A stretch of 22,954 nt of DNA from a virus: positions 1 to 22,954 of the IMG/VR virus record IMGVR_UViG_3300020056_001790, one strand, 5' to 3'. A model generated the notes under the pieces. It made no database searches, had not been told where the DNA came from, and saw nothing but the letters and a program-made list of their open reading frames with translations. Positions 1 through 22,756 of this stretch are shown here, one piece after another; the stretch's first letter is position 1; the number at the start of each line of letters is the position of its first letter. Position numbers and translations under genes: made by a program.

Positions 1-1589
1 TTGTTTGTAATGTCAAAACTGTTTGAAACAAAACTAAAGTTATTGCTGTTATCAACATTCATAACATTAACACTGTTGTTTGTAATATCAAAACTGTTAC
101 TGTTGAATGTTAAATTATTGCTGTTATCAACGTTCATGATACTAACACTGTTGTTGGTAATATCAAAACTTTGACTTACAATACTAACTGTGTTGCTGTT
201 ATCAATTGTTACGTTGTTGCTGTTGTCAATGTTTAAAACACTCAAGGAGTTGTTGGTAATATTATAACTGTTGCTGGTAAATGAAACATTGTTGCTATTA
301 TCAATGTTTAGTACATTTACGCTGTTGTTTGTAATATCATATGAATTACTAATAAATGCAATATTGTTGCTGTTATCTATTGATAAAGAATTTATAGTGT
401 TGTTTGTAATTAAATATGAATTACTTGTAACACTCCAATTAAAACTATTATCAATATTTAAAACATTGTATTGTGTATCAACGTCAAGCACAGTTTGGTT
501 AATCTGTATATCAAAATTTTGTGCTGTAATATTTACACTGTTATCAAACGCAATATCAAATATATTAATATCGTTGTTGGTAATATCAAAACTAACGTTT
601 GTAAATGACACATTGTTACTGTTATCAATTAATAAGTTATTGTTTAAATTAAACACACTATTGTCAATTGTGATGTTGTTGCTTGCGTCGATTGTCATAA
701 CATTATTGAATGTTATATCTGAACTTGCATCGATATTAAACAAGTTTGTAGTTAAATTAAAATTGTTACTAGCATCAACATTCAATGTCATAGTAGAACT
801 ATTATCAATGAATATATTATTGTTATTACCTAACGCTAAGTTATTGTTAGCGTATATATAAATGCCTGCATCGGCACCTGCTTCAACAGTAATAGCACCA
901 TTTGACAAACCTCCTAATGCAGGAGGTGTGTATTCAAGTGTGCCAGTTGAGCTTTCATATACTAATGCACCTGTACCTTCATTTGGATACTGTACAATTT
1001 CAATTTCTGATAGCACTTGACTGACGGTAACACCAAAGTCGTTACCCGCAAAATCAACAATAGTACCGCCTGATGGCAAACGCAAGTTACCGTCTTGTTG
1101 GAATATCCATGTGTAACTGTTGTTGCTGTTATCGGTAATAATATTTGTAGTTTCAGTATTGCTGATTGTTGTATTTGTTGTTACAGTATTGATTACGTTG
1201 TTTGTAATTTCAACTGTTGTGTCACCTGAGTTAATATCAATATCAACACTGTTGTTTGTGATGTTAATAATATTATCACCGCTATTGATGTTGATATTCA
1301 TAGCAGTTGTAATATTCATTGTTACACTGTTTGTAACATCAATGATCATATTGTTTGATAGATCAATACTGATTGTTACCATTGTAACATCTACGTTGTT
1401 TTGAATTTGTATTTCTTGTGTAATTACTCTAGCATTATCAACATTTACTGTTATAACGTTTTGCTCAATTCCTACCAGTGTGAACAAGTTTGAAAAGTTG
1501 TTGTTGATTTTTACAAATGCAGAATATATACACTCGCCATCTGTTGCAAGTCTACCTGATCCTACGTTAACTAATTCAAAACTACTCAT
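1..1589 (-). CDS. Tail fibre-like structural protein, 3' end cut by window edge
   Basis: This is an open minus-strand frame of at least 529 codons from ATG at 1589 that leaves the window at base 1, so the C-terminus is missing. The N-terminus carries a DGECIYSAFVKINNNF segment; similar 'DG...AF.KINNNF' openings are known to me from tail and fibre proteins of marine T4-like phages. A middle part (about residues 155-235) looks globular and contains LRLPSGGTIVDFAGNDFG. The rest is Asn/Ser/Ile/Val-rich low-complexity sequence built on DITNNSV and NVDNSNN units, which become a regular repeat toward the left edge. Such composition suggests a beta-solenoid or trimeric fibre shaft (inference). It is the last of three structural genes read in the same direction and starts 10 bases after the previous stop. 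Whether it is a host-binding fibre or another appendage cannot be told. Confidence 0.75.
   Translation of the reverse strand, partial: MSSFELVNVGSGRLATDGECIYSAFVKINNNFSNLFTLVGIEQNVITVNVDNARVITQEIQIQNNVDVTMVTISIDLSNNMIIDVTNSVTMNITTAMNININSGDNIINITNNSVDIDINSGDTTVEITNNVINTVTTNTTISNTETTNIITDNSNNSYTWIFQQDGNLRLPSGGTIVDFAGNDFGVTVSQVLSEIEIVQYPNEGTGALVYESSTGTLEYTPPALGGLSNGAITVEAGADAGIYIYANNNLALGNNNNIFIDNSSTMTLNVDASNNFNLTTNLFNIDASSDITFNNVMTIDASNNITIDNSVFNLNNNLLIDNSNNVSFTNVSFDITNNDINIFDIAFDNSVNITAQNFDIQINQTVLDVDTQYNVLNIDNSFNWSVTSNSYLITNNTINSLSIDNSNNIAFISNSYDITNNSVNVLNIDNSNNVSFTSNSYNITNNSLSVLNIDNSNNVTIDNSNTVSIVSQSFDITNNSVSIMNVDNSNNLTFNSNSFDITNNSVNVMNVDNSNNFSFVSNSFDITN
3..587 (-). repeat. In-frame 25/25/33-residue tandem repeats
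   Basis: The DITNN-type motif (plus-strand gttKgtaatatc and variants) recurs at 3, 78, 153, 252, 327, 402, 501 and 576. The spacings are 75, 75, 99, 75, 75, 99 and 75 bases. Every spacing is a multiple of three, so the coding frame is kept. The 33-residue units are 25-residue units with eight extra residues, and the order 25-25-33 recurs, giving a higher-order period of 249 bases (83 residues). The array continues past the left edge. Confidence 0.85.
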
Positions 1590-2903: not shown

Positions 2904-3275
2904 ATGCTATTAAAAGATATTGAACAAAAATTTCCATACTTGAGTGTTGTCGCATATGGCGGAAACGAATATATAGGTGTGATTGTTAATCAAGATCCAA
3001 CTATAACAACAATGTATATCTACACCAAATTAAAGTCTGATGAACACAAAGCACTGTTGATTGAACTAGGAGAAATTTGGTGGTGGGAATCAAATCGTAT
3101 GATTCCAATCAATATATTTTTGAGAAACGAAATAGCAGAATTAAATTATAGTTTAATATCTATGAATTCAAAAGATGTTAAAGTTGTTATTGGACCATGT
3201 GTAAATTTAAACAACTTGACTATGAAACGTGTTAAACGAAAAAGTGTGCAAGTTATGCGGAAGCCGGCTCGCTGA
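2904..3275 (+). CDS. Conserved-looking unknown protein on the opposite strand
   Basis: A 123-residue protein I cannot assign. It is a compact soluble protein with a hydrophobic N-terminal half, a striking EIWWWESNRMIPINIFL segment (about 57-73) and a basic tail (MKRVKRKSVQVMRKPAR), which could bind nucleic acid or a partner; this is speculation. No transmembrane segment or signal peptide is evident. The ATG lacks a visible Shine-Dalgarno sequence (it follows TTATTAAAAA). It is one of only two plus-strand genes here. It diverges from the structural operon and its last 23 bases overlap, tail to tail, the end of the DnaE-like gene. Confidence 0.6.
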   Translation: MLLKDIEQKFPYLSVVAYGGNEYIGVIVNQDPTITTMYIYTKLKSDEHKALLIELGEIWWWESNRMIPINIFLRNEIAELNYSLISMNSKDVKVVIGPCVNLNNLTMKRVKRKSVQVMRKPAR

Positions 3276-3825
3276 GTTGTTCGCATACAAGATTCATATG
3301 AACAACACATGCCATAGCATATGAAATAGCGTGTGCTTTTTTAAAATAGTATGATCCGTCAGTGGGTGCAACCCACACATTTTCTAATATCGTTTGCCAA
3401 GTTTCGTTGACAAGATGGCGTTTGGCAGGCCGAATCATCGCTAACACTGCTGCCAACTGTTCTACGTTTGTAGGGTTTGTTTTGCGAAGAATCTCTCCGT
3501 GACCGGAGATATGAAAGATAAGATCTACAAAATCGTCGTGTTGTAAGAGACTCCATTCAGGTTCCTTGTTCATTAAAAGTTGTAAGTGTTCATTATCGAT
3601 AATATCATTATAGATGCTAACATTCAAAAAATCTAATTTAAAGTATCCTCTGTCTTCTGCTGTTTTGTAATCAATAGTGCTCAAGTTGTCCACAGGATTG
3701 TGCGGACACTCAGTAACGTATACACCGGTGTTGTGTTTTTTACCTGTATCTAGTTTTGCCACACGGTGTTGTATCTTGTCTAATATAACACTGCGATCAG
3801 CAAAGTCGATATCAATATCAGGCAT
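3253..3825 (-). CDS. Miniature DnaE-like (DNA polymerase III alpha palm) protein
   Basis: A 190-residue protein that aligns colinearly, in my reading, with the polymerase core of bacterial DnaE (about 1,160 residues) but with large deletions. MPDIDIDF at the N-terminus corresponds to the MPDFDVDF aspartate motif. KKHNTGVYVTECP (29-41) matches the GKHAGGVVIAP region. IDYKTAEDRGYFKLDFLNVS (51-70) matches VTQFD...GLVKFDFLGL, including the third catalytic Asp (D65). EWSLLQHDDFVDLIF to AAVLAMIRPAK (90-135) matches the FDMLQ...VALFRPGP part. YYFKKAHAISYAM (159-171) matches YGFNKSHSAAYAL. PHP, thumb, beta-binding and OB parts are absent. It overlaps the previous gene by eight bases (ATGCCTGA) with GGAG nine bases upstream. 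Activity alone seems doubtful; a regulatory or decoy role is possible. Confidence 0.75.
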   Translation of the reverse strand: MPDIDIDFADRSVILDKIQHRVAKLDTGKKHNTGVYVTECPHNPVDNLSTIDYKTAEDRGYFKLDFLNVSIYNDIIDNEHLQLLMNKEPEWSLLQHDDFVDLIFHISGHGEILRKTNPTNVEQLAAVLAMIRPAKRHLVNETWQTILENVWVAPTDGSYYFKKAHAISYAMACVVHMNLVCEQLSEPASA

Positions 3826-4000
3826 TTATTTTACTCCAATGATATTCGCCTTCTTTGGGCGTGTTCCCAATATACTCTTCTCCTGTCTCTCTGTCAACCA
3901 GTTTCCACTTCATAGGAGCACGAGTTTTAATAACCAGTTCTACAGGCTCCTCAAGTTCATATACTTGCACTCCATCTTTAAGTTTTCTAAAGTTAGTCAA
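3818..4000 (-). CDS. Small unknown protein
   Basis: A 60-residue protein if it starts at TTG 4000, or 74 residues from an upstream GTG at 4042. I prefer TTG 4000 because GAGAGGAAGG lies just upstream and the codon overlaps the stop of the nucleotidylyltransferase gene (TTGACTAA). The upstream alternative would overlap that gene by 50 bases. The sequence has a beta-rich look (VQVYELEEPVELVIKTR, then WKLVDRETGEEYIGNTP) and no motif I can name. It is tightly coupled to its neighbours: stop TGA falls inside the ATGCCTGA start region of the DnaE-like gene. Confidence 0.6.
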   Translation of the reverse strand: MTNFRKLKDGVQVYELEEPVELVIKTRAPMKWKLVDRETGEEYIGNTPKEGEYHWSKINA

Positions 4001-4406
4001 GTTTGCCTTCCTCTCTGAGTTTTGCCCTAATTTTTGTAGCACTGATGTTGTGTATCTCTTCTCCTAAATCGTGTTGTGTAAATGTGTATCCTACACCACG
4101 ACCGTAACTGATATCTACAATGTTTGGCACTTGCATGATAACATACTCTACACCTTCGGTAAAGTCGTGTTCTGCTAGTCCTGCAACAATGTTTTGACGT
4201 ACTTCATTCCAACGAAATGGATTATCATCTTGTGTTGCTGTGCGTCCTGCACCTGCGTCTTCTCCTACAATGCCTCCAACATCACGTACCATAATACAAA
4301 CTTGTCCTGTTTCAGCAAGTGCTTTTTTAAACAATGCAGTATGTCCATCGTGCCATGGCTGCCAGCGTCCAAGCATCTGTGCTGTAGGTTTTTTCCAATC
4401 AAACAT
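3993..4406 (-). CDS. Nucleotidylyltransferase (HxGH superfamily, NMNAT-like)
   Basis: A 137-residue protein from ATG 4406, chosen over an ATG at 4433 because GGAGAGA sits a few bases upstream and the start overlaps the previous stop (ATGTTTGA). It carries the two signatures of the HIGH/ISxTxxR nucleotidyltransferase superfamily: GRWQPWHDGH (13-22) and ISATKIR (121-127). The first resembles the GRFQPFHxGH of nicotinamide mononucleotide adenylyltransferases. The enzyme would transfer a nucleotidyl group from an NTP to a phosphorylated substrate; the substrate is not known. It sits directly downstream of an APS-kinase-like gene and, in my memory, this pair recurs in marine T4-like phages. NAD salvage or activation of a surface-polymer precursor are the main options. 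Confidence 0.75.
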   Translation of the reverse strand: MFDWKKPTAQMLGRWQPWHDGHTALFKKALAETGQVCIMVRDVGGIVGEDAGAGRTATQDDNPFRWNEVRQNIVAGLAEHDFTEGVEYVIMQVPNIVDISYGRGVGYTFTQHDLGEEIHNISATKIRAKLREEGKLD

Positions 4407-4824
4407 TATTTCTCTCCATCCAACGTTGTACAACTTTCAGTAACACTTCATGTGTATCACTAAACCACCCTTCTACATGATAATCACAATGAGGCGGATC
4501 TACAAACATTTTATTTGTATCTTCAAACCTGCCTTCTTTGATTGTATCCATCCATACAGTAAAGTCGGGGTTAAACTCACTACGTGCTTGTTCTGTAGGA
4601 CACACAAAGTCAGTAACTGCAACTTTGCCTGCACGTACAACACCGTCCGCTAGATAGCGCATACGTGCTGCTTGACGCATACGTCCTTCTGGTGAAAAGT
4701 CCCAGTCGTTATAATGACTTCTAACTTCGTCTGCATTAATATGCACACCTCCAATTAAGTCAGCAAAAGGTTTTGCTAACGTGGTTTTGCCACTACCTGG
4801 CAAACCAAATATTAAAATTTTCAT
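4399..4824 (-). CDS. APS-kinase-like P-loop kinase
   Basis: A 141-residue P-loop protein. The Walker A motif GLPGSGKTT is at 7-15. NADEVR (30-35) and the following RMRQAARMRYLADGVV and VAVTDFVCPTEQAR segments follow the order of adenylylsulfate kinase (CysC), where the matching parts are the DxDxxR motif, the Arg-rich helix and the TSFISP strand. CysC makes PAPS from APS, but this protein is shorter than the usual roughly 180-200 residues and could phosphorylate another small molecule or a nucleotide. The ATG overlaps the previous stop (ATGA), and the nucleotidylyltransferase follows with an eight-base overlap, so the two are probably co-translated and may act on one substrate. Confidence 0.7.
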   Translation of the reverse strand: MKILIFGLPGSGKTTLAKPFADLIGGVHINADEVRSHYNDWDFSPEGRMRQAARMRYLADGVVRAGKVAVTDFVCPTEQARSEFNPDFTVWMDTIKEGRFEDTNKMFVDPPHCDYHVEGWFSDTHEVLLKVVQRWMERNNV

Positions 4825-5501: not shown

Positions 5502-5961
5502 CTTTTTCGTACCCGTGTTCTCGGGCGAGTTCTTTGATTTCTTTTTTTGTAGATATTCTAGCAAGTGTTTCGACCTCGTCCATCTTCATGTCTGGATATA
5601 TTTGTGCTAATAATTTTACTGCTTTGCTGCTGTCGTCTTTTTTCTTCTTTAATCCGATCCAAGGATGGAATTGTTTTTTACCTGTTTTACCTGCAACACA
5701 TAACAGTTGCCATTGCAGTTTAACATGATTTGTTCCGCCTAATACATTCCAGTTTTTGTTGTAATATTCATTAACTTTAAACACTGCTAGTGCAGTCTTT
5801 TCATAGTTGCCTTTGACACTACTAATATAACGGTTTAGGTTCCATAAGTCAAGTTTAATATCTTTCTTGCCATCTTCGCCAGCAGCATCATACAGCTCTT
5901 TGAAACCCATATCAATGCTTGGAATAAGTTCTTTGAATAAGTCTAGTTCTTTGTTTGCCAC
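5491..5961 (-). CDS. Conserved marine T4-like phage protein, unknown function
   Basis: A 156-residue protein from GTG 5961, with AGAGGA about nine bases upstream and 19 bases of overlap with kdsB. It has an acidic N-terminus (KELDLFKELIPSIDMGFKEL), a central LWNLNRYISSVKG (40-52) and WQLLCVAGKTGKKQFHPWIG (84-103), segments I associate with a hypothetical protein common to marine T4-like phages. The C-terminal part is charged and helical. No catalytic motif is recognised. Its stop lies next to the start of the zinc-finger protein gene, so the two are likely translated together. Confidence 0.6.
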   Translation of the reverse strand: MANKELDLFKELIPSIDMGFKELYDAAGEDGKKDIKLDLWNLNRYISSVKGNYEKTALAVFKVNEYYNKNWNVLGGTNHVKLQWQLLCVAGKTGKKQFHPWIGLKKKKDDSSKAVKLLAQIYPDMKMDEVETLARISTKKEIKELAREHGYEKVDI

Positions 5962-6608
5962 TTTTCTAAATCCTCTGGCGTGTTAATTTCAATACCGTCA
6001 AACTCAACTTCTACTACGCCAATCTTTTGTCCGTTTTGTATCCAACGTAGTTGTTCTAGTTTTTCAATATCTTCCTCTGCGTACTTGGTGCTAGTAGTAT
6101 ATACAATCTTTGCTTCTCTGTTATAGCCATACACACCCAAGTGATGATCACCGTATGTGAGACTTGCACGTAAGAACCAATGCGCTCTACCTCTGCTGTG
6201 TATCATTTTAACACTGTTTGGATCATTTCGCAAGTTAAAATCCATTGGTGTATATGCAGTTGCTACGTCACTAAACTGTAATGCACCTTCTACAGCACGT
6301 ATAATATCTTCTGTGATGTCTGGCATATCGCCTTGTACATTTATATATCTATCATATTGTAACACTTCGTCAATAACTTGCATACAGCGTTCTGTGCCAT
6401 TTTCTGCCTCACGTGTCATGAGACATCTATTGGCACCCATATAGTTGTAAATGTCTTGATGATCAGTTAGCACATAAGTATCAAGGCCTGTAGCAGCACA
6501 CTTGTTGTAAACGTGTTCCACCAATGGCACACCTTTTAGTATTGTCATCATCTTACCAGGAAAACGTGTGCTTGCATATCGTGCAGGTATTAGTATTGCC
6601 GTTGTCAT
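5943..6608 (-). CDS. kdsB: CMP-Kdo synthetase (3-deoxy-manno-octulosonate cytidylyltransferase)
   Basis: KdsB activates Kdo with CTP to give CMP-Kdo, the donor for lipid A core and capsule Kdo transferases. The 221-residue protein carries the family motifs in order: IPARYASTRFPGK (7-19, nucleotide loop), TDH (48-50), ENGTER (69-74), NVQGD (90-94, metal-binding Asp), HHLGVYGY (155-162), EKLEQLR (182-188) and INTPEDLE (208-215). It is shorter than the usual roughly 250 residues, mostly through losses between the NVQGD and HLG regions. The family's GDEP reads GDMP here. The ATG has AAAGG seven bases upstream. kdsA lies two genes upstream in the same direction. A related cytidylyltransferase specificity (for example for another ulosonic acid) cannot be excluded. 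Confidence 0.88.
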   Translation of the reverse strand: MTTAILIPARYASTRFPGKMMTILKGVPLVEHVYNKCAATGLDTYVLTDHQDIYNYMGANRCLMTREAENGTERCMQVIDEVLQYDRYINVQGDMPDITEDIIRAVEGALQFSDVATAYTPMDFNLRNDPNSVKMIHSRGRAHWFLRASLTYGDHHLGVYGYNREAKIVYTTSTKYAEEDIEKLEQLRWIQNGQKIGVVEVEFDGIEINTPEDLEKWQTKN

Positions 6609-6619
6609 TTGTTGCCTTT

Positions 6620-7270
6620 CTATAATCTACCAAATGCCCATTTTCTTTCTTCGCACCACCAACAGTTATCACAATGAGATTCAAATGTTGTTGTTGGTGT
6701 AGTACAACTTCTTGTTTTATCAAATAAATCTTCTATGCCTAGAATACGGTATGCGGTTGCAACATCACGTTTATCATGATTTTTCATAGGTGAAAAATGT
6801 TTACCATTTATTACGTGTGAATGTTTTTTGCTCCTATCGTCATCTAATTTGTCGTATTTTTTTGCAAGTTTGTTAAAACTATGATCTTGAGGTTTTGCAG
6901 TTATTGCTGTTATAAATCCTTCAATACCTTCTTGGTAATGTCTACGTTTTTGTTTTTTCATAAAATCAAGTTTTTCAAAACCTGTTCCTGAAAAGTTATG
7001 TACTAAGTGTTTTCCTAACTTTATCGGATATCTTGCTATTGTATACTGTATTATATTTTTTGAAAATATTTCTTGAAAAGGTGCCTCAGATTCTAATATA
7101 GTGAATGGAAAGATTGTTTGATTAATACTATTTTCAAAAATATATTTTGCTGTATAATAAAACAATAACGCAGAATCTGCACCACCACTTATACTAAATG
7201 CCAAGTTTTTTTTATTTCTTGGATAGTGTTCATTATAAATATCATCTAAAAATAGTACACCTGGTATCAA
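6620..7270 (-). CDS. PP-loop ATPase with C-terminal zinc site (QueC-like or sugar amidotransferase-like)
   Basis: A 216-residue protein with the PP-loop signature SISGGADS (26-33), which binds ATP and adenylates the substrate. Near the C-terminus are four cysteines spaced like a QueC zinc site: C189 in TRSC, then C200-x2-C203-x2-C206 in HCDNCWWCEERKWAF. QueC turns carboxy-deazaguanine into preQ0, but PP-loop amidotransferases of surface sugars (WbpG/PseA type) are an alternative that suits the location between kdsA and kdsB. The start is TTG 7270, overlapping the kdsA stop (CGTTGA) with GGAG six bases upstream. No other deazaguanine gene is present in the window. The middle is Lys/His-rich and not recognised. 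Confidence 0.7.
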   Translation of the reverse strand: MIPGVLFLDDIYNEHYPRNKKNLAFSISGGADSALLFYYTAKYIFENSINQTIFPFTILESEAPFQEIFSKNIIQYTIARYPIKLGKHLVHNFSGTGFEKLDFMKKQKRRHYQEGIEGFITAITAKPQDHSFNKLAKKYDKLDDDRSKKHSHVINGKHFSPMKNHDKRDVATAYRILGIEDLFDKTRSCTTPTTTFESHCDNCWWCEERKWAFGRL

Positions 7271-8064
7271 CGAAAACTCCGTACAGTTTGATTGATGTGA
7301 TATAGTTGACGCACTGTTTCTGCAAAGTCTTCCAAGCGTAGCATATTAGGCCCATCACTTGGTGCATTATCTGGATCAGGATGTACTTCTAAGAAGAAGT
7401 TATCAACACCCATGCCAGCGGCAGCATTAGCAAGAGCTGGAACATAAGCCCTATTACCACCACTGCTGTCACCTTGGCCTCCTGGCTTCTGGACTGAGTG
7501 TGTGACGTCAAATACCACAGGAACAGGAAAGTTGTCACGCATATACTGGATGCCAGTAAAATCAGTGACCAAAGTATTATATCCAAAACTAGTACCTCTT
7601 TCTGTTATCCAAACTTCTTTTGCACCATAGTGTGCTGTTTTACTTAGTATTCCTTTGACATCCCAAGGTGCTAGGAACTGTCCTTTTTTAACATTTATAA
7701 TACAGCCACTATCACAAGCTGCTTTGATTAGATCAGTTTGTCTGCACAAAAACGCAGGTATTTGCAGCACATCAACACTGCTGGTCATTCTATTCCAGTC
7801 TTTGATTTGATACACTTGTGACACATCATGCACATCAGTTAGTGTTTTTATTTCTAAACTTTTTTTGATTATATCAAAATGTTTTAGTGTATCTTCTAAA
7901 CCAATGCCACGTTTGCCTGTTATGCTTGTGCGATTGGCTTTGTCAAAACTTGCTTTAAAGATATATTCAATATCAAATAAATCACATACACGTTTGCATT
8001 CTTTAGCAATATCAAAACTATGTGATAAACTTTCGTGCTGACACGGTCCGGCAATAATTCTCAT
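7267..8064 (-). CDS. kdsA: Kdo-8-phosphate synthase, metal-dependent type
   Basis: KdsA condenses phosphoenolpyruvate with arabinose-5-phosphate to Kdo-8-phosphate, the first committed step of Kdo synthesis. The 265-residue protein covers the full family length. Motifs are GPCQHES at 6-12, KASFDKANRTS (37-47), LTDVHD (75-80), QIPAFLCRQTDL (101-112), INVKKGQF (123-130), ERGTSFGYN (155-163), FDVTHS (185-190), EVHPDPDNA (226-234) and SDGPN (236-240). C8 in place of the Asn of the E. coli enzyme, with H189, E226 and D237, marks the metal-dependent class. KANR and FDVTH favour KdsA over DAHP synthase. The ATG has GGAG upstream. The phosphatase KdsC and isomerase KdsD are not in the window, so host enzymes would be needed. 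Confidence 0.92.
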   Translation of the reverse strand: MRIIAGPCQHESLSHSFDIAKECKRVCDLFDIEYIFKASFDKANRTSITGKRGIGLEDTLKHFDIIKKSLEIKTLTDVHDVSQVYQIKDWNRMTSSVDVLQIPAFLCRQTDLIKAACDSGCIINVKKGQFLAPWDVKGILSKTAHYGAKEVWITERGTSFGYNTLVTDFTGIQYMRDNFPVPVVFDVTHSVQKPGGQGDSSGGNRAYVPALANAAAGMGVDNFFLEVHPDPDNAPSDGPNMLRLEDFAETVRQLYHINQTVRSFR

Positions 8065-8065
8065 G

Positions 8066-8344
8066 TTAGTCTCCGTCTCTTATAATATAATAGAGATCCA
8101 GTGTTTTGTCAAGTTGTTTCCGCAGTGTAGGATGTGTATCTGCCAATGCAAATAGTTCTCGCCAACTGTCGTATCCTAAATATCCTTGTGCTTTTGCTAC
8201 GCCCTCTGCATCTCCACCTATGATCCATCTTCCTGGATAAATGCTTTTTTTAGGCTCATCTCTAAACCGTGCATAAACTACACCTTGAGCTCTCTCATAT
8301 ATAAGAGCTTCGCCTGCTAGGTCTTCATTTTTTGGTCTAAGCAT
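8066..8344 (-). CDS. Small unknown protein
   Basis: A 92-residue protein from ATG 8344, which overlaps the stop of the dehydrogenase gene (ATGCTTAG) and has GGA seven bases upstream. The frame is open further upstream, but that would overlap the dehydrogenase gene by more than 60 bases. The sequence is mixed alpha/beta (GEALIYERAQGVVYARFRD; IYPGRWIIGGDAEGVAKAQG; LGYDSWRELFALADTHP) with no motif I can name. WIIGGDAEG looks like a turn around a small-ligand site but this is only an impression. It lies between the UDP-sugar dehydrogenase and kdsA, in the carbohydrate block. Confidence 0.55.
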   Translation of the reverse strand: MLRPKNEDLAGEALIYERAQGVVYARFRDEPKKSIYPGRWIIGGDAEGVAKAQGYLGYDSWRELFALADTHPTLRKQLDKTLDLYYIIRDGD

Positions 8345-9131
8345 CACGCATTCCGTTAAACACTGTTTTTGTAAACTGTTGATTATCGTTATCAATATCA
8401 CCGATTAAGTTGTATGGTAAATCCAAGTTTTTCAACAGTGTGTTAAAAGCCTTTACATCTTTGGGCAAACACATGCCACTGTATCCACGCAACTGTTTAT
8501 TAACATCTAAATACAAATCGTTAGTCTTACCTGTTGTTACATATGCATCTTTTATTTTACTGTAATCACATTCAAACTGCTCTGCAACTTCGTAAAAAAT
8601 ATTTGCAAAAACAATACGCAATGCAGCATACGTGTTGTTATAATATTTAAGTATTTCAGCTTCTGTAGGTGATAGTTGTTTTGTATTTTTTGGCAAGTGT
8701 CCATGTGCTTCAACAATCTTTTTGTATACATACGGATCGTTTGTGCCCACAGCCAATAGTTCGTGATTGTTAATAAAGTCGTCGGCTGCACAGCGTTCAC
8801 GTAAAAACTCTGGAGCAAAACAGATACGCAAATCTGCATATCTTGCAATCATAGATTCTGTAAATCCAACACTAACTGTGCTGCGAATGCAAACAATTCC
8901 TTTATAATCAAGACTGCTTAAATCGTCAACTACTTGTTCTACAATTTCTGTGTCACAATCATTTTCTAGATTTGGTGTTGGTACACAAACAAAAACTATT
9001 TCTGTATCTAATACATCTTTGATTTCTGTATCAAACTTAATATCGTGCGTGATAACTTGATGTTGTAGTAACGTAAAACCAGCACTGTTTGCACTGCCCA
9101 CAACACCCATTCCTATGATTCCTAGTTTCAT
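8337..9131 (-). CDS. Short UDP-glucose/GDP-mannose dehydrogenase family protein
   Basis: A 264-residue member of the UDP-sugar 6-dehydrogenase family, which oxidises a nucleotide sugar to the uronic acid with two NAD+. The N-terminal Rossmann motif is GIIGMGVVGSA (4-14), followed by VCVPTP (48-53), STVSVGFTE (84-92), APEFLRE (106-112) and the dimer helix LKYYNNTYAALRIVFAN with K162 and N166. The catalytic Cys is C221 in SGMCLPKD. Family members are usually about 390-450 residues; here the sequence stops about 40 residues after the Cys, so the C-terminal UDP-binding domain is missing. The ATG follows GGAAAG and overlaps the epimerase stop. It may be an active short form, act on another substrate, or need a partner. 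Confidence 0.85.
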   Translation of the reverse strand: MKLGIIGMGVVGSANSAGFTLLQHQVITHDIKFDTEIKDVLDTEIVFVCVPTPNLENDCDTEIVEQVVDDLSSLDYKGIVCIRSTVSVGFTESMIARYADLRICFAPEFLRERCAADDFINNHELLAVGTNDPYVYKKIVEAHGHLPKNTKQLSPTEAEILKYYNNTYAALRIVFANIFYEVAEQFECDYSKIKDAYVTTGKTNDLYLDVNKQLRGYSGMCLPKDVKAFNTLLKNLDLPYNLIGDIDNDNQQFTKTVFNGMRDA

Positions 9132-9991
9132 AATAAACTTTCCACTGTTTTCTTTAATCCTTCTTCCAAAGGCGTATAATCTGTAAATCCTGTTAGTGTT
9201 TGAACAAGAGTAGTATCAGGACATCTACGAGTAGCACTACCTTTAAGTCCAGGCAAGATTTCTAATCTATCTGGGTTAATGCCCATGTAACCCATTATCA
9301 TTTTTGCAACTACTGAAATACTTATTTCATTGTCGTTACCGACATTTACGGTTTTGTTACTGACATTATTTACAAGCATGTCTGTCATAGTAACAGCATC
9401 ATTTACATAACAAAAACTGCGTGTGTCATTGCCGTTGATATAGTACAATCCGTTTTTGCATCTTTCAATAAACTCGTTTACAAAATGATCAGTTTGTCCT
9501 GGACCGTACACATTAAAGTAACGAATAATCAAATAGTCAAGTCCACTGTTTGCAACTAGATTCTCTCCTAGTGCTTTTGGAATACTGTAACTCCAACGAG
9601 GATTGGTAATATCGTTGTACATAATAGGCACTGCTTCATCTGTAGGCACATGATAGTATCCGTTGTCAATAGTGCTGTTGAATATTTCACAAGTACTAGC
9701 AAACACAAACTTTGTGTTGGTATTTCTGTAGCGTTCAATAAGATTTACAGTGGGCAATGTGTTGTTGATTAACACATCTGTAGGATGATCGTAAAACAAC
9801 CGTGTGCCATTAGTTGCAGCTAGATGCACTATTACATCAGTATCGGGCATGAGTTTTGTTGTATTTGAATCAGCTAAGTCTTCGCCTCTAATCTTTTTAT
9901 CATATGGAACAACATGTCTTTGCTGTTCTTGCAAAAACTTATAGTAATGACTGCCTATAAAACCATGCGATCCTGTAAGTAACATTTTCAT
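9128..9991 (-). CDS. NAD-dependent epimerase/dehydratase (extended SDR)
   Basis: A 287-residue nucleotide-sugar epimerase/dehydratase. It has the Rossmann motif TGSHGFIGSH (6-15), VHLAATNG (55-62), FASTCEIF (97-104), the catalytic Y135-x3-K139 (YSIPK) and RYFNVYGPGQ (157-166), typical of UDP-glucose 4-epimerases, GDP-mannose 4,6-dehydratases and UDP-xylose synthases. The exact reaction cannot be read from the motifs. It is directly followed, with a four-base overlap, by a UDP-sugar dehydrogenase, so decarboxylation or epimerisation of the uronic acid product is one possibility. The ATG overlaps the stop of the glycosyltransferase gene before it. Confidence 0.87.
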   Translation of the reverse strand: MKMLLTGSHGFIGSHYYKFLQEQQRHVVPYDKKIRGEDLADSNTTKLMPDTDVIVHLAATNGTRLFYDHPTDVLINNTLPTVNLIERYRNTNTKFVFASTCEIFNSTIDNGYYHVPTDEAVPIMYNDITNPRWSYSIPKALGENLVANSGLDYLIIRYFNVYGPGQTDHFVNEFIERCKNGLYYINGNDTRSFCYVNDAVTMTDMLVNNVSNKTVNVGNDNEISISVVAKMIMGYMGINPDRLEILPGLKGSATRRCPDTTLVQTLTGFTDYTPLEEGLKKTVESLL

Positions 9992-12131: not shown

Positions 12132-13595
12132 TTATTTCCAATCTACTTTTTCTATAGTGAATGGGTACTGCGCCTCTTTGTAAAACTTTTTACGTTGAGT
12201 AAGGTGCCGCTTCGCAAACTTACAAGTGCTTGTAAGATCCCATATTTGCACGAAGTCTTTGTCCTTTGCCTTTCTAACGCCTCTACCTATAGATTGAATA
12301 ACTCTAACAAAACTTTTTCCAGGTTCAATAAGTACAAGGTTAAAAATACGAGGGATATTAATACCAACAGCAGCGACACCATAAGTGGCAATAACCACTT
12401 GATTATCTGCCGTGTTGATTTCGTCATACGCATCTTTTCTATCCTTTAGTTTTACATCGCCTTTTACGAATGTTGATCCTGGTATAAGTTCTTGTAGCAT
12501 CTCGCCTGCACTAATCCTATCTACAAGTATTAGAGTATTGCCTGATTGTTTTACACTGTTTAATAGTTTGCCTATATATTCGATTCTTGCTTGATTTGTT
12601 GTTAAATATTTTAATTCTTCTTGATAGTTTGTATGTGCTACTGTGTCAATAAGTTGCACAATATTAACATGACATGCTGAAAGCACTCCTTTGTCTTGTA
12701 GTTCTTTTGCAGTAATCTCGCCAATGACTGGACCTAAACTTGCGTGTATACTTTCAAACTCAAACTTTTCTTTAGGTACAGTGCCTGTTAGTCCCCAACG
12801 TATCGGAGCATTACGCAAGTTACGTGTTAACAAGTTTTTAAGAACTTCTGCTTTTGCTTGGTGTACTTCGTCCACAATAACTGTGCTTACACCTTCTAAA
12901 AACTCTGCAAGACTTAAAACTGCTTCGCCATCCTTGTGTCTTTTGTCTAAAATGTTTAAACTTTGCCATGTACAAATAGTATGTGTTTTGTTTAACATCT
13001 TTCTATCGCCAAAATACACACCTACATCTAGTCCACAGTTAATATAGTCTTCTTCAGTTTGTTCAACTAGACTTTTGTTAGGAACAATAACAAGACTACG
13101 ACCGTACTTTTCACTCATGTGTGACAGTGTAGCAGTTGTAATAGTTTTACCTGCACCTGTTGCAATCTGTTGCAGGCTTTGTGGATTGTTTGCAAAGTTG
13201 TTGATTGCTTCGACTTGATAGTCACGCAGAATGATTTCTTCACCTTCTGCAGGATGTCCTTTAGGCCAGCATACACCTTGGTCAGCCCAATAGCGTTCTG
13301 TTACTGGTGCAAAGCTCAAGTCGATTGGATGACGTCTGTCTTCAATATCAACTATTTGAACATTGTTTTTAGCAAGTACTTCAGTAACAATATCCAAGTG
13401 ATTAACATAGCCAGTACCGCCAATACCAAAAAAAGCAACTTTGCCGTCCCACCTGCCAAGTTTATACTGTGGCATATATCGTGCGTATGGCACATCAAAC
13501 TTGAGAGCATTTGATAACTTTCGCCGTACATCTACATCTAATCCTTCTAGTTTGATGTTTACTTCATCTTCTATGATAAGTTTACATGTTGCCAT
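12132..13595 (-). CDS. uvsW: UvsW-type SF2 DNA/RNA helicase
   Basis: UvsW unwinds branched DNA and R-loops and drives the switch from origin-dependent to recombination-dependent replication in T4. The 487-residue protein has the full SF2 set: LRDYQ (123-127, Q-like motif), Walker A ATGAGKT (145-151), DEVH (242-245), LTGT (269-272), LILVDR (355-360), ATYGVAAVGINIP (403-415) and QSIGRGVRK (434-442). About 120 N-terminal residues precede the helicase core as in T4 UvsW, with ARYMPQYKLGRWDGK matching the N-terminal domain. It overlaps the gene before it by 25 bases. It sits between two carbohydrate islands, away from uvsX and uvsY. Confidence 0.93.
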   Translation of the reverse strand: MATCKLIIEDEVNIKLEGLDVDVRRKLSNALKFDVPYARYMPQYKLGRWDGKVAFFGIGGTGYVNHLDIVTEVLAKNNVQIVDIEDRRHPIDLSFAPVTERYWADQGVCWPKGHPAEGEEIILRDYQVEAINNFANNPQSLQQIATGAGKTITTATLSHMSEKYGRSLVIVPNKSLVEQTEEDYINCGLDVGVYFGDRKMLNKTHTICTWQSLNILDKRHKDGEAVLSLAEFLEGVSTVIVDEVHQAKAEVLKNLLTRNLRNAPIRWGLTGTVPKEKFEFESIHASLGPVIGEITAKELQDKGVLSACHVNIVQLIDTVAHTNYQEELKYLTTNQARIEYIGKLLNSVKQSGNTLILVDRISAGEMLQELIPGSTFVKGDVKLKDRKDAYDEINTADNQVVIATYGVAAVGINIPRIFNLVLIEPGKSFVRVIQSIGRGVRKAKDKDFVQIWDLTSTCKFAKRHLTQRKKFYKEAQYPFTIEKVDWK

Positions 13596-18317: not shown

Positions 18318-19052
18318 CTAGTCTGACCTTTTTTTTTGATCTTCTAGTTCCTTGGTGAGATACAAGCGTTCTGCTTTGTAATACTCATTTGCATATTCGC
18401 AGTCTTGATAATCTTCAAACCAAGGACCACCTTCTGTGTAATGTAGTGCTTTTGGTTTACCATCGTCTGGCTCTTTGTACCAGCCAACTAGCCAGTTCCA
18501 CTCGTGACTGATTGCTCCAATCTTGTCATCGTCTAACCAACTAAATCTATGAAACCATGCACCAGTTTTGTGTTCATCATTTACACACTCGGGTGTAAGA
18601 ATACTATTGTCAGGATGGCCTGCGTTAAACAAAACTGCACTACTCCAGTTTTTTCTTGGATAAATGTGCTGATCTTTTCCATCCATCTTTGTGCCAGCTT
18701 TTGGAGTGTAATCGTGTTGCGCACACATGACTGCAAACTTGTCATTTGTTTTGGCAAACAACTTTGCAACATCATCTAGGAAAATAAAATCACAATCGAT
18801 AAACAAAGCCCATCCCTCAAAGTTTGCAAGTCTAGGAACTAAGAATCTTGTAAAAGTAAATTCTGTGCTTGCAAGTGTATCTACTGCACGAGTATACATT
18901 CCATCTCTGCGTAAGTTATGTTGTTTTAATGGTATTACTTTTACAGGCACAGATGCATGTTTCAAAATACTTGCTTTACATGCTTGAAATGCAATATCTT
19001 CTCTACTGTCCCATCCAACATATATTCTAAGTGGTTCAATCTCTTCGCTCAA
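18318..19052 (-). CDS. DxD glycosyltransferase (GT8-like)
   Basis: About 244 residues from TTG 19052; an ATG at 19058 is the alternative but lies only one base after GGAG, while the TTG is seven bases away. Motifs (numbered from the ATG) are LRIYVGWDSRED (10-21), YTRAVDTLASTEFTFTRFLV and DCD in LFIDCDFIFLDD (85-96). GAISHEWNWLVGWY and ALHYTEGGPWF then follow the usual order of small GT-A hexosyltransferases of bacteria and marine phages. It overlaps the nucleotidylyltransferase-cupin gene by about 17 bases. Its C-terminus (KELEDQKKRSD) ends abruptly just after the A9 tract, so the natural end may be longer. Confidence 0.78.
   Translation of the reverse strand: MSEEIEPLRIYVGWDSREDIAFQACKASILKHASVPVKVIPLKQHNLRRDGMYTRAVDTLASTEFTFTRFLVPRLANFEGWALFIDCDFIFLDDVAKLFAKTNDKFAVMCAQHDYTPKAGTKMDGKDQHIYPRKNWSSAVLFNAGHPDNSILTPECVNDEHKTGAWFHRFSWLDDDKIGAISHEWNWLVGWYKEPDDGKPKALHYTEGGPWFEDYQDCEYANEYYKAERLYLTKELEDQKKRSD
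18329..18337 (-). other. A9 slippery tract at the end of a glycosyltransferase gene
   Basis: The minus strand reads GATCAAAAAAAAAGG, in frame as GAT CAA AAA AAA AGG, followed three codons later by TAG. A -1 slip, or an A10 version of the run, enters the open frame at 18181-18317 and continues into the gene ending at 17368. A AAA AAA is a slippery heptamer of the type known to support -1 frameshifting in bacteria and phages. Confidence 0.5.
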
Positions 19053-19800
19053 TATCATTCTCCGTTAGTTCTTTTCCCATCCAAACTTCAACTACTTTAG
19101 CATCTTTGTTGTCAATGTTAACTGCCTTGTGCCACCAGCCAACAGGAATATCAATACTGTCTCCTGGTGTTAGTAGTGTGCTAGTTCTTCTGCCTATTTT
19201 ATCTTCAAGGAACATATTTATAACACCGTCAACTACATGCCAATGTTCACTGCGTTTGAAGTGGCGCTGATCGCTTAGTGCCTTTCCTTGATAAAATGTA
19301 AGTTCTTTAACCTGCCATTCGCCGTTGCGATCTAATATTTTATATTCGCCCCAAGCACGTTTGGTTACAGGCTTTTCCCAGTTTTTTAATATCCAACTCG
19401 AACTGTTCTTTTTATCTTCTCCGCCAACACCAAATACAAAATCTACGTCTTTGTGATCGCCATATATTTTTTGTTCAGGTATTTCTCCGTCAACTCTATC
19501 TCCACCGTTAGCGACAATCAACTTACCACTGTTTGTAGCCAGCAAATAGCCAATGGCTTGTGTTGTACCTCCGGTATCATCGTCTTTAACAAGTATAACC
19601 TCGTCTACCATATCTAGATGCTTAACGATATTTGCTCTTTCAACAAGTGGCATAAATGGCTTGCCTTTTTTATTAACAAGCCATTCGTCACTGTTGAGTC
19701 CAACAACCAGTTTATCTCCTAGTTGCTTTGCTGCTTTGAAATATTCAATATGTCCGCTATGTAGTGGATCAAATCCGCCTGTAACTAATACTGTGGTCAT
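19036..19800 (-). CDS. Nucleotidylyltransferase-cupin fusion
   Basis: A 254-residue two-domain protein. Residues 1-135 form a cytidylyl/adenylyltransferase of the RfaE/HldE C-terminal type, with TGGFDPLHSGHIEYF (7-21) holding the HxGH site and LVVGLNSDEWL (31-41). Residues 145-250 form a cupin of the type II mannose-6-phosphate isomerase kind, with RAWGEYKIL (148-156), HFKRSEHWHVVDG (180-192) and GWWHKAVN (221-228). HldE makes ADP-heptose; the fused cupin suggests another nucleotide-sugar or alditol product. The start is taken as ATG 19800, directly at the first strand; an upstream ATG at 19845 would overlap the previous gene by 35 bases. Coupled genes on both sides encode a glycosyltransferase and a methyltransferase. 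Confidence 0.82.
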   Translation of the reverse strand: MTTVLVTGGFDPLHSGHIEYFKAAKQLGDKLVVGLNSDEWLVNKKGKPFMPLVERANIVKHLDMVDEVILVKDDDTGGTTQAIGYLLATNSGKLIVANGGDRVDGEIPEQKIYGDHKDVDFVFGVGGEDKKNSSSWILKNWEKPVTKRAWGEYKILDRNGEWQVKELTFYQGKALSDQRHFKRSEHWHVVDGVINMFLEDKIGRRTSTLLTPGDSIDIPVGWWHKAVNIDNKDAKVVEVWMGKELTENDIERRD

Positions 19801-19810
19801 ACGGTATTTA

Positions 19811-20434
19811 CTACTTCCAACCGAATATGTAATCTTTTCTGACATTACCTAAGGACACTGCACCTAGTTCTCGCAAATAGTCTGCTGCTTGATATTTTGA
19901 TTCAGGATGCTGTTCTACTATAACAATAGGTTTGTATTTTAGTATTGTATCTTTACCGCCTTTGACTACTTCTAGTTCGTGACCTTCACAGTCAATTTTT
20001 AACATTCCAAACTTAGGTAAATCTAAACTATCTAATGTCTTAATATCAATAGTGCCTTGTCCTACTTTGCTTACAAAACTACCGCCTGTGTTTTCACTAT
20101 CATAGGTCATAGTAACTTTGCTATTGGTAGATCCAAGTGCAAACTTATTAATCTCTACAGGTAAATCTTTACAGTTCATTTCTAAACAACTATAAACTTG
20201 TTCAAGTGGTTCAAATGCAATAACTCGATTAAACTTTTCTACTAAATGTTTAGACCATAATCCAACGTTTGCACCCACATCAACTGCAATATCAAAGTCT
20301 TTTACATATTTGTATGCTTCTGCTCTAGTATCGTCTTGGTATTGTGGAGGCCCACCTTTTTTTATTCTTTTTGCTATAAGACGTTCAAAATGCTCATCGG
20401 TATCGGGCATCCAATATTCAAAAACTTTTTTCAT
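19811..20434 (-). CDS. FkbM-family methyltransferase
   Basis: A 207-residue SAM-dependent methyltransferase. AVDVGANVGLW (50-60) is the SAM-binding loop, VIAFEP (71-76) holds the acidic ribose ligand, and TLDSLDLPKFGMLKIDCEGH (around 135-153) is the FkbM signature, followed by VVKGG and KPIVIVEQHPE. FkbM proteins methylate oxygens of sugars and natural products. Here it probably methylates a surface glycan made by the neighbouring glycosyltransferases (context inference). It overlaps the methyltransferase gene before it by four bases. Confidence 0.85.
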   Translation of the reverse strand: MKKVFEYWMPDTDEHFERLIAKRIKKGGPPQYQDDTRAEAYKYVKDFDIAVDVGANVGLWSKHLVEKFNRVIAFEPLEQVYSCLEMNCKDLPVEINKFALGSTNSKVTMTYDSENTGGSFVSKVGQGTIDIKTLDSLDLPKFGMLKIDCEGHELEVVKGGKDTILKYKPIVIVEQHPESKYQAADYLRELGAVSLGNVRKDYIFGWK

Positions 20435-21450: not shown

Positions 21451-21672
21451 TTAATCCCAGTCGTCTTCGTCGTAATCGTCGTCTACATCTAAGTAATATT
21501 GAATAGCATTATCTAAATCTTTATCATTACCTAGCGATTCTTTTAGTACGATATCATCAACTCCATAGTCTGCAAGTAGATCAACAAACTTTTCTGCTGT
21601 TATTTCTACTTGTTTTTTATCTAAGTTTGGCTTAAACAAGTTCCAGATATCAACAATCTGTTCTTCATTCAT
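21451..21672 (-). CDS. Small acidic protein between uvsX and uvsY
   Basis: A 73-residue acidic protein ending in a dense run of Asp and Glu (DVDDDYDEDDWD). The rest is predicted helical (VDIWNLFKPNLDKKQVEITA, FVDLLADYGV). Its ATG overlaps the uvsX stop (ATGAATGA context) and its stop is one base before the uvsY ATG, so all three are coupled. The acidic tail resembles those used to mimic DNA or contact ssDNA-binding proteins, which would fit a modulator of the UvsX-UvsY system, but this is inference. I know of no named family. Confidence 0.6.
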   Translation of the reverse strand: MNEEQIVDIWNLFKPNLDKKQVEITAEKFVDLLADYGVDDIVLKESLGNDKDLDNAIQYYLDVDDDYDEDDWD

Positions 21673-22756
21673 TCTCGGCTAACTCCTCGTTATGATCAAT
21701 CACTGCTTCTTCGTCAGCGTTAGCGATATTTACCATTTGTTCTTCTTTTGCCGGTAAATCGGCCATGATCATTTCGAGTTTGTCACCTGTCCAATTCTTA
21801 CGATATTCTAGTGTTTCAACACCTGTACTATCAATGTATTTGTAACGATTACCTTGTTTCTCAAGTAAGCCTTTTGCTTCAAGCAAATCAAACATACCTG
21901 AATATGGATCCATACCTGTTTCGTATGGAATCTTAACTTGTACACCTTCAAACGGTTTTGCGTAACGTGTTTTCATAACTTTACACGCTGCACGAATACC
22001 ATTTACTGTGCTGGTTTTGTTACCATCTGCATCCTCTTTTAGTTTTAGTTTTTTCATTGCTACAACCATTGAGCTTGCATAGATAAAACCGCTACCGCCT
22101 GAGATCTTATCATCTGGATCAAACATATCTTGACTTGCGTATGTGTGGTTAGTAACAACCATACCTACGTTATATGAACCAAACATATTAACACAGTTAG
22201 TAACCAATGCTTTTAGTGCTTTGGCCTTACGACCCATATCACCTTTCATATCACCTGCTTCAAACTGATTAACTTCAGTTGGTGACATAAGCATACCCAA
22301 ACTATCAACTACAAACAATACTTTAGGACGATCTGCTTCGTCCATTGCACGATAGTCATCCATAAATGTTGAAATAGTTTTGGCAACGTCATCAATCATT
22401 GCCATATTGAGTTTTAGGATTTTGTCTTCTGTTGTTTCTACACCTAAGGCGTGTAGCCACTTTTCATCAAGAGCATTTTCACTGTCAATCAGTACAACAA
22501 AAATACCTTGTTCTTGTGCTGACTTGACAATATTACCAGACACAATATACGATTTACCTGCACCACTTTCGCCTGCAAATACGCTTACTTTGCCTAGTGG
22601 AATACCTCTACGGAAATCACCACTTAGCAGATAGTTAAGTGCATAGTTGCCTGTACTGATCCAATCTTGCGGATCATTAAAGCCTGCACTCATACCTTTA
22701 ATAGATTTTGTTAATGAGTTTCGAAACTTGGAAGGATCGAATGCTTTTGTAGCCAT
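21665..22756 (-). CDS. uvsX: UvsX RecA-like recombinase
   Basis: UvsX forms filaments on ssDNA and catalyses strand exchange for recombination-dependent replication and repair. The 363-residue protein (T4 UvsX about 390) has Walker A GESGAGKS (62-69), LIDSENALD (89-97) with the catalytic Glu region, Walker B VLFVVD (146-151), the L1/L2 neighbourhood (FEAGDMKGDMGRKAKALKAL, then VTNHTYASQDMFDPDDKISG) and an acidic C-terminus. AGGAG lies seven to eight bases before the ATG. A UUCG hairpin separates it from the gene upstream. Confidence 0.94.
   Translation of the reverse strand: MATKAFDPSKFRNSLTKSIKGMSAGFNDPQDWISTGNYALNYLLSGDFRRGIPLGKVSVFAGESGAGKSYIVSGNIVKSAQEQGIFVVLIDSENALDEKWLHALGVETTEDKILKLNMAMIDDVAKTISTFMDDYRAMDEADRPKVLFVVDSLGMLMSPTEVNQFEAGDMKGDMGRKAKALKALVTNCVNMFGSYNVGMVVTNHTYASQDMFDPDDKISGGSGFIYASSMVVAMKKLKLKEDADGNKTSTVNGIRAACKVMKTRYAKPFEGVQVKIPYETGMDPYSGMFDLLEAKGLLEKQGNRYKYIDSTGVETLEYRKNWTGDKLEMIMADLPAKEEQMVNIANADEEAVIDHNEELAENE

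What the first reader, a model, noticed from the sequence alone, without database searches (positions are those of the whole stretch)
3253..3825. A 190-residue miniature of the DnaE polymerase core
The protein keeps, in order, five landmarks of the DnaE palm/fingers region, including the PDxDxDF aspartates and the third catalytic Asp in KLDFLN, yet it is about one sixth of DnaE and lacks PHP, thumb and C-terminal domains. T4-like phages use a family B polymerase (gp43), so a C-family palm fragment has no obvious replication role. It could be a host-polymerase decoy that competes for the clamp loader or template, a regulator, or a repurposed nucleotidyltransferase.
Basis: partly seen in the sequence, partly recalled or inferred. 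Interest (0 to 1): 0.85.

Follow-up and report, generated by a model that had tools for sequence, protein, structure and literature searches.

The report
Half of a split phage polymerase
This small phage gene encodes one half of a stripped-down bacterial-type DNA polymerase whose other half is made from a separate gene in related large phages; the split had already been predicted from genomes, and what the enzyme does is still to be tested.

Summary
The ORF is real: minus strand, 3253-3825, 190 aa, under purifying selection, with several hundred relatives. It is the C-terminal half of a split, minimal Pol III alpha core. In 93 sequences the catalytic aspartates (E. coli D401, D403, D555) and K553 are invariant; the steric-gate His (H760) is kept in 98%. 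The AlphaFold model aligns along nearly its whole length to C-family polymerases.

It is not a complete miniature core. It starts at PDxDxDF and lacks the GRGS half of the palm, most of the thumb, and the fingers segment with R709/R710. The missing palm half is a separate ~170-185 aa protein in the same genomes (59 of 60 listed cultured-phage records). The halves map to adjacent DnaE segments (E. coli ~272-393 and ~399 onward). This split was published for group 2.2 jumbo phages (PMC7824862).

The decoy idea has no support. Best reading: two subunits rebuild a short-patch nucleotidyltransferase beside the family B replicase. Assembly and activity are untested. The window is too short to show the partner gene.

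Side finding: a ~550-aa PHP-less DnaE lies near this gene in many uncultured relatives; my searches found no report of it.

The parts
3253..3825 (-). C-terminal half of split minimal Pol III alpha (190 aa; second half of palm plus reduced fingers), PHROG 11778
3802..3822 (-). PDIDIDF, residues 2-8; D3, D5, D7 correspond to E. coli D401, D403, D405; each invariant in 93 sequences
3622..3639 (-). KLDFLN, residues 63-68; K63 corresponds to K553, D65 to D555; both invariant in 93 sequences
3316..3345 (-). FKKAHAISYA, residues 161-170; H165 corresponds to the proposed steric gate H760; kept in 98% of 93 sequences
   Evidence: H760 role from PMC8485763 (abstract and passages)
2904..3275 (+). Convergent small ORF (123 aa, PHROG 11637, unknown function) whose 3' end overlaps the C-half gene by 23 nt; conserved neighbour
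3818..4042 (-). 74-aa ORF just upstream whose stop overlaps the C-half start by 8 nt
12132..13595 (-). UvsW-like helicase; same order and strand as in RaK2 and CBB (context only)
21665..22756 (-). UvsX-like recombinase; same order and strand as in RaK2 and CBB (context only)

Best explanation
The gene encodes the C-terminal subunit of a split, minimal C-family DNA polymerase core. SHOWN by sequence and predicted structure: it starts at the strand that carries the metal-binding aspartates and continues through the third aspartate into a shortened fingers domain with the sugar-selecting histidine; a second, separately encoded protein in the genomes of its relatives carries the preceding palm segment with the GRGS motif and stops just before PDxDxDF. 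INFERRED: the two proteins join non-covalently, rebuild one Pol beta-type active site and add deoxynucleotides. Because thumb, R709/R710 segment, clamp-binding and PHP parts are missing, the enzyme should be distributive. Most likely it fills short gaps or extends primers next to the phage's own family B replicase: the C-half gene lies within a few kb of primase and/or DnaB-type helicase genes in 8 of 8 cultured phages viewed, and the N-half gene a few genes from an annotated clamp loader in 4 of 8. The window itself is too short to show the N-half gene.
For: D3, D5, D7, K63, D65, H31, G34 invariant in 93 sequences and H165 in 98%. AlphaFold model of the window protein: pLDDT 90.1, pTM 0.79. 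The first 13 rows of the structural comparison are C-family polymerases (three of them are titled only 'DNA polymerase' and are taken as PolC from their residue numbers), Z 6.1-9.4, 180-188 of 190 residues aligned at 3.2-4.3 A; next row Z 3.3. Foldseek ranks 1-14 are of the same kind. The N-half model (residues 64-185) aligns to E. coli 272-393; its first 11 rows are C-family polymerases, Z 7.3-10.6. PF07733 is divided between the proteins: positions about 18-98 in the N-half of ten records, 95-196 in the C-half of three, the latter below cut-off. hhalign to a DnaE alignment: C-half 96.0%, N-half 96.6%, to non-overlapping segments; the halves do not match each other, 0.2%. Both halves in 59 of 60 listed cultured-phage records, RefSeq/GenBank duplicates included, in XacN1 and in Slicko01. 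N-half and family B polymerase found in the same 10 of 14 records. Gene neighbours: C-half; N-half. dN/dS 0.08-0.18. Published prediction of this split in group 2.2 jumbo phages (PMC7824862, section 13 read).
Against: The fingers residues R709, R710, K714, K715, invariant in five longer C-family proteins, fall in a segment missing here, so polymerase competence is uncertain. In IMG/VR contigs the halves are seldom seen together: N-half in 3 of 52 C-half contigs (14-262 kb), C-half in 5 of 18 N-half contigs, three of those five being RaK2/121Q-type genomes of 346-355 kb. The halves lie about 120 kb apart in G001 and G054, so fragments are expected to lack one, but G003 (262 kb, C only) and G058 (236 kb, N only) are long. 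Foldseek E-values are modest (best 1.2e-3 and 5.5e-3), and Pfam/NCBIfam are below cut-off for the single sequence. The meeting of the three aspartates in space was not measured, because no coordinates were returned. The N-half is not near an annotated clamp loader in 4 of 8 phages viewed.
Confidence: 0.72

Rival explanations
1. The two halves assemble, but into something other than a DNA polymerase: for example an end-processing or template-independent nucleotidyltransferase, or a DNA-binding platform that keeps the metal site for structure.
For: Thumb region 22 residues against 104 in E. coli (407-510); the R709/R710/K714/K715 segment is missing; no clamp-binding or PHP part; a family B replicase is present in the relatives anyway.
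Against: The steric-gate His, K553 and the aspartates are kept, a combination expected for dNTP incorporation; the gene lies near primase and/or helicase genes.
Confidence: 0.15
2. In part of the lineage the C-half works with, or has been partly superseded by, the ~550-aa PHP-less DnaE encoded a few kb downstream rather than with a stand-alone N-half.
For: All 16 contigs of at least 22 kb that were fetched by the compact DnaE and were not already known as C-half contigs also carry the C-half. 8 of 52 C-half contigs carry the compact enzyme, including the one whose C-half is 91% identical to the window's. None of the 16 shows a separate N-half.
Against: In G001 and G054 the N-half lies about 120 kb from the C-half, beyond the reach of the compact-enzyme contigs on that side, so absence is not shown. 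G001 and G054 have both halves and no compact enzyme. The compact enzyme has its own full set of active-site motifs.
Confidence: 0.08
3. A decoy or regulator that competes with the host Pol III for clamp loader, clamp or template.
For: A small fragment of a host-type replicase in phages whose relatives have their own replicase.
Against: The chain ends with the fingers, so C-terminal binding parts have no counterpart; catalytic residues are invariant; a complementary half is encoded in the same genomes.
Confidence: 0.04
4. A decaying remnant of a captured dnaE gene.
For: Large parts of DnaE are missing.
Against: Hundreds of relatives of similar length, dN/dS 0.08-0.18, invariant catalytic residues.
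Confidence: 0.01

Closest known systems
Split minimal DNA polymerase III alpha of group 2.2 jumbo phages (PMC7824862); PHROG 11778 (C-half) and PHROG 11127 (N-half)
   Same: Stand-alone C-terminal, Mg- and template-binding part; in relatives a separate, usually distant gene for the N-terminal part and a family B polymerase; no other Pol III alpha domains in the protein
   Different: The window is a 23-kb virus record (taken as uncultured) that does not itself contain the N-half. The paper's figure with accessions is not held here, so identity of the families rests on its text and on the cultured phages searched.
Bacterial DnaE (Pol III alpha), e.g. E. coli DnaE
   Same: Second half of palm, catalytic aspartates, K553, HxxG, R639-P640, steric-gate His, order of motifs
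   Different: No PHP, no GRGS half of palm, thumb almost gone, fingers segment with R709/R710 gone, nothing after the fingers
PolC (Geobacillus kaustophilus, 3f2b)
   Same: Same fold over 186 residues at 3.5 A, Z 9.3
   Different: Same omissions; the motif has the third Asp of DnaE (DIDID) where PolC has Asn (PMC3919608, passages)
Full-length DnaE-like polymerase of Streptomyces phages (Zemlya gp55, 1159 aa)
   Same: Phage-encoded C-family polymerase, weak local similarity (28%, query residues 31-149)
   Different: Single long chain with the active-site motifs in one protein

Membership tests
Split minimal Pol III alpha of jumbo phages (C-half) | Stand-alone protein carrying the metal-binding aspartates and fingers only | tested here: met
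   190 aa, model aligned to DnaE from the aspartate strand through the fingers
Split minimal Pol III alpha of jumbo phages (C-half) | Separate gene for the N-terminal NTP-binding half in the same genome | not testable with these tools
   The 22,954-base record shows none but is likely a fragment. In relatives: 59 of 60 listed cultured records, XacN1, Slicko01 and contigs G001, G002, G052, G054 have both; many contigs, G003 and G058 the longest, show one half only
Split minimal Pol III alpha of jumbo phages (C-half) | Accompanied by a family B polymerase | not testable with these tools
   Window too short and not searched for it. In relatives 10 of 14 records, the same ten that carry the N-half
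Split minimal Pol III alpha of jumbo phages (C-half) | Group 2 phage context (UvsW helicase, T4-like replication genes) | tested here: met
   UvsW-like and UvsX-like genes in the window; same order in RaK2 and CBB
Split minimal Pol III alpha of jumbo phages (C-half) | Same protein family as the accessions in the paper's Figure 3b | not testable with these tools
   Figures not held; the text names group 2.2 with Atu_ph07, whose N- and C-halves were found here
C-family DNA polymerase (Pol III alpha) | Three catalytic aspartates | tested here: met
   D3, D5 and D65 invariant in 93 sequences
C-family DNA polymerase (Pol III alpha) | Complete palm including the GRGS segment in one chain | tested here: not met
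   Chain starts at PDIDIDF with an in-frame stop just upstream; the segment is in the separate N-half of relatives
C-family DNA polymerase (Pol III alpha) | PHP domain, thumb, HhH and clamp-binding motif | tested here: not met
   No sequence for them: 22 residues where E. coli has 104 (thumb region); chain ends with the fingers
C-family DNA polymerase (Pol III alpha) | Steric-gate His (H760) | tested here: met
   H165 in 98% of 93 sequences; role from PMC8485763
C-family DNA polymerase (Pol III alpha) | Nucleotide polymerising activity | not testable with these tools
   needs bench work
Decoy or inhibitor of host Pol III | Binding to host replisome parts | not testable with these tools
   needs bench work; no search for binding motifs was run

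The most novel reading that the evidence does not exclude
Many uncultured T4-like phages of this lineage carry three C-family-derived pieces: the two split halves and, a few kb downstream of the C-half, a ~550-aa one-chain DnaE without PHP. They would then hold both a compact one-piece and a split minimal Pol III core beside a family B replicase, with the C-half either an accessory subunit of the compact enzyme or part of a second, specialised polymerase. All three in one genome has not been seen here; the contigs with the compact enzyme are too short to tell.
Probability: 0.3. Interest if true: 0.7.

Novelty: new member of a known kind. Interest (0 to 1): 0.45.

Why it matters
If the pair works, it would be a Pol III core of only about 360 residues in all, split within the palm between the GRGS segment and the aspartate strand. 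It would show which parts of the bacterial replicase are dispensable for catalysis. PMC7824862 proposes that such versions model the ancestral enzyme; a biochemical test on proteins of 170-190 aa is straightforward. That many uncultured relatives also keep a compact ~550-aa PHP-less DnaE near it gives an intermediate size to compare.

Tried and rejected
Stand-alone miniature polymerase: rejected, because the GRGS half of the palm is missing and sits in another protein. Host-polymerase decoy: no support (see rivals). Pseudogene: rejected on dN/dS and conservation. Fusion of the two halves into one minimal chain: looked for among ORFs of at least 60 codons in the 263 loci then held; the only ORFs matching both profiles were four longer DnaE-type proteins (E. 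coli DnaE, Zemlya gp55, an 859-codon frame in L263, and the compact DnaE of L022), so no minimal fusion was found there. Single-sequence matches in Pfam, NCBIfam and PDB were weak or below cut-off and alone would not have settled the case. Streptomyces phage hits: the one opened is a full-length DnaE. A paper search for nucleotide-contacting fingers residues gave nothing, so statements on R709/R710 rest on conservation in five aligned proteins and recall. Origin of the split (ancestral or derived): no tree was built. Paper searches for the split enzyme or for a compact PHP-less phage DnaE: in open-licence PMC papers only; among what I opened only PMC7824862 describes the split, and PMC9123017 (passages) reports PF07733 in 51.9% of its cluster PGC_A without saying which form. 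Sequences left out: of 108 C-half ORF hits, four full or compact DnaE were dropped before counting conservation. The C-half alignment for AlphaFold used the window and 75 of the 93 C-half loci then fetched from IMG/VR; the 18 left out were chosen without a strict rule (near-duplicates for the most part, L009 for a stop, L195 cut short). The N-half alignment used 78 of 145. Contigs tested for the compact DnaE: 52 C-half contigs, not all that were fetched.

Full report
OBSERVATION. The frame at 3253-3825 is open on the minus strand (190 aa, ATG, preceded in frame by TAA). The plus strand there is not coding. The sequence upstream of the start contains GGAG, and the start overlaps the stop of a 74-aa ORF by 8 nt. 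PHROG 11778 ('DNA polymerase') matches at 2e-58. A tblastn search finds 126 phage records, 63 with at least 80% of the query covered; the strongest are large phages such as PA5oct, Phosso, Atu_ph07, 121Q, RaK2, GAP32, CBB and SCTP-2. dN/dS of the window gene against eight relatives (76-91% identical) is 0.08-0.18.

WHAT IT IS. In 93 sequences, after four longer DnaE proteins were left out, D3, D5, D7, H31, G34, K63 and D65 are invariant and H165 is kept in 98%. The proline of PDxDxDF is not conserved: 19 of 104 ORFs did not fit the pattern with Pro. Against the E. coli protein fetched here these positions are D401, D403, D405, H511, G514, K553, D555 and H760. D401, D403 and D555 are the catalytic triad (PMC3919608, passages), and H760 is the proposed steric gate (PMC8485763, abstract and passages). 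Between PDIDIDF and the HxxG histidine there are 22 residues against 104 in E. coli; between RP and the F of the H760 motif 27 against 115. The second gap removes R709, R710, K714 and K715, which are invariant in five longer C-family proteins.

STRUCTURE. The AlphaFold model of the window protein has pLDDT 90.1 and pTM 0.79. The 13 best structural rows are C-family polymerases (Z 6.1-9.4, 180-188 of 190 residues, 3.2-4.3 A; three rows, 9qrn, 9qpc and 9qrl, are titled only 'DNA polymerase' and are taken as PolC from their numbering); the next row has Z 3.3. The list is a second look at Foldseek's candidates, whose own best E-value is 1.2e-3. The first aligned residues in Taq (461) and M. tuberculosis (419) agree with the sequence register of PDxDxDF.

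THE OTHER HALF. PF07733, searched in 14 records, matches a second protein over its cut-off in ten of them at model positions about 18-98; the C-half is seen in three of the 14, below cut-off, within 95-196. The second protein carries GRGSS about 30 residues before its end and stops at or just after a final EF motif (EFLR, EFLK, EFLN, EFFK). Its model (pLDDT 82.9, pTM 0.61) aligns over residues 64-185 to E. coli 272-393. Profile comparison puts it at DnaE 320-393 (96.6%) and the C-half at 509-642 (96.0%); the halves do not match each other (0.2%). It is PHROG 11127. Of 60 listed cultured records with the C-half, duplicates included, 59 are also in the N-half list; the exception is PP728206, a 109-kb record marked UNVERIFIED, against about 346 kb in its relatives. 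XacN1, seen first by its N-half, has the C-half. The genes lie 11 kb (Slicko01) to 224 kb (Phosso) apart. Among IMG/VR contigs the pair is seldom complete: 3 of 52 C-half contigs show the N-half (G001, G002, G052) and 5 of 18 N-half contigs show the C-half (G054, G052 and three RaK2/121Q-type genomes). In G001 and G054 the genes are about 120 kb apart, so fragments should often lack one; still, G003 (262 kb) shows only C and G058 (236 kb) only N. The window shows no N-half, as expected for 23 kb.

CONTEXT. Family B polymerase is found in 10 of 14 records, the same ten as the N-half. In 8 of 8 cultured phages viewed (RaK2, PA5oct, Atu_ph07, Phosso, SCTP-2, Slicko01, Vibrio 2.275.O, CBB) the C-half gene is followed within a few kb by a gene annotated as primase and/or DnaB-type helicase. 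The N-half gene is a few genes from an annotated clamp loader in 4 of 8 viewed (RaK2, Atu_ph07, CBB, XacN1); Phosso and Vibrio 2.275.O have an unnamed ATPase there, PA5oct none annotated, and in Slicko01 the clamp loader is beside the C-half instead. In the window UvsX, UvsW and the C-half gene have the same order and strand as in RaK2 and CBB. A convergent small gene of PHROG 11637 follows the C-half in the window and in 7 of 8 cultured phages (Slicko01's neighbour did not match) and in 69 of 99 loci with enough sequence, its end overlapping in 65 of the 69.

PRIOR WORK. Section 13 of PMC7824862 (read whole; other passages) describes a phage-specific minimal Pol III alpha in group 2.2 jumbo phages, split into an N-terminal NTP-binding and a C-terminal Mg- and template-binding protein from distant genes, and suggests cooperation with the family B enzyme. 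PMC6102473 and PMC5259590 (passages) note a Pol III alpha-like gene in Atu_ph07 (gp316) and a truncated one in CBB (CBB_328, 172 aa); by position these are the N-halves. PMC9123017 (passages) reports PF07733 in 51.9% of the phages of its cluster PGC_A. The finding is therefore a new member of a described kind.

SIDE FINDING. A ~550-aa DnaE-type protein without PHP (PF07733 148 bits, PF17657 55 bits) with the active-site motifs including RR lies roughly 4-11 kb downstream of the C-half in 8 of 52 C-half contigs, or 7 of the 28 with at least 7 kb downstream (the distances also). One is the contig of L001, whose C-half is 91% identical to the window's; the contig of L005 (82%), with 175 kb downstream, lacks it. 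In the other direction, 305 IMG/VR stretches encode it (80 kept), and all 16 kept contigs of at least 22 kb that were not already known as C-half contigs carry the C-half; none of the 16 shows a separate N-half. The ORF before it in L264 reads like a DnaB-type helicase; I did not search it. A 484-kb uncultured phage has a 36% identical relative over 97%. I found no description of it in the searches listed.

MECHANISM. Shown: homology, split point, conservation, co-occurrence in cultured phages. Inferred: assembly, catalysis, short-patch synthesis. I put about 0.95 on identity as the C-half, 0.75 on assembly with the N-half, and 0.35 on gap filling or primer extension as the role; these are judgements.

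Noticed in passing
L264:1441-3084; also the contigs of L001, L004, L025, L030, L038, L040, L060 (L266-L272): A ~550-aa DnaE-type polymerase without PHP, a few kb downstream of the C-half; all 16 further contigs of at least 22 kb fetched by it carry the C-half. No description found in my searches.
   Followed up: partly
window 2904-3275 (+): Conserved convergent small gene (PHROG 11637, unknown function) whose 3' end overlaps the C-half gene in 65 of the 69 loci where it was found; possibly functionally linked.
   Followed up: partly
window 3993-4433 and 4399-4824 (-): Two overlapping ORFs match consecutive parts (119-228 and 2-121) of one PHROG family (10255, 'kinase'): a P-loop kinase-like part and a nucleotidyltransferase-like part encoded separately here.
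   Followed up: no
window 5943-6608, 7267-9991, 18318-19845 (-): Sugar-metabolism type genes between UvsX, UvsW and the C-half gene: DAHP-synthetase family (PF00793), cytidylyltransferase (PF02348), UDP-glucose/GDP-mannose dehydrogenase, epimerase, mannose-6-phosphate isomerase C-terminal type, and a glycosyltransferase 8 match just below cut-off.
   Followed up: no
window 3-1589 (-): Open-ended ORF of at least 529 aa rich in Asn repeats (DNSNN, ITNNS), running off the record.
   Followed up: no
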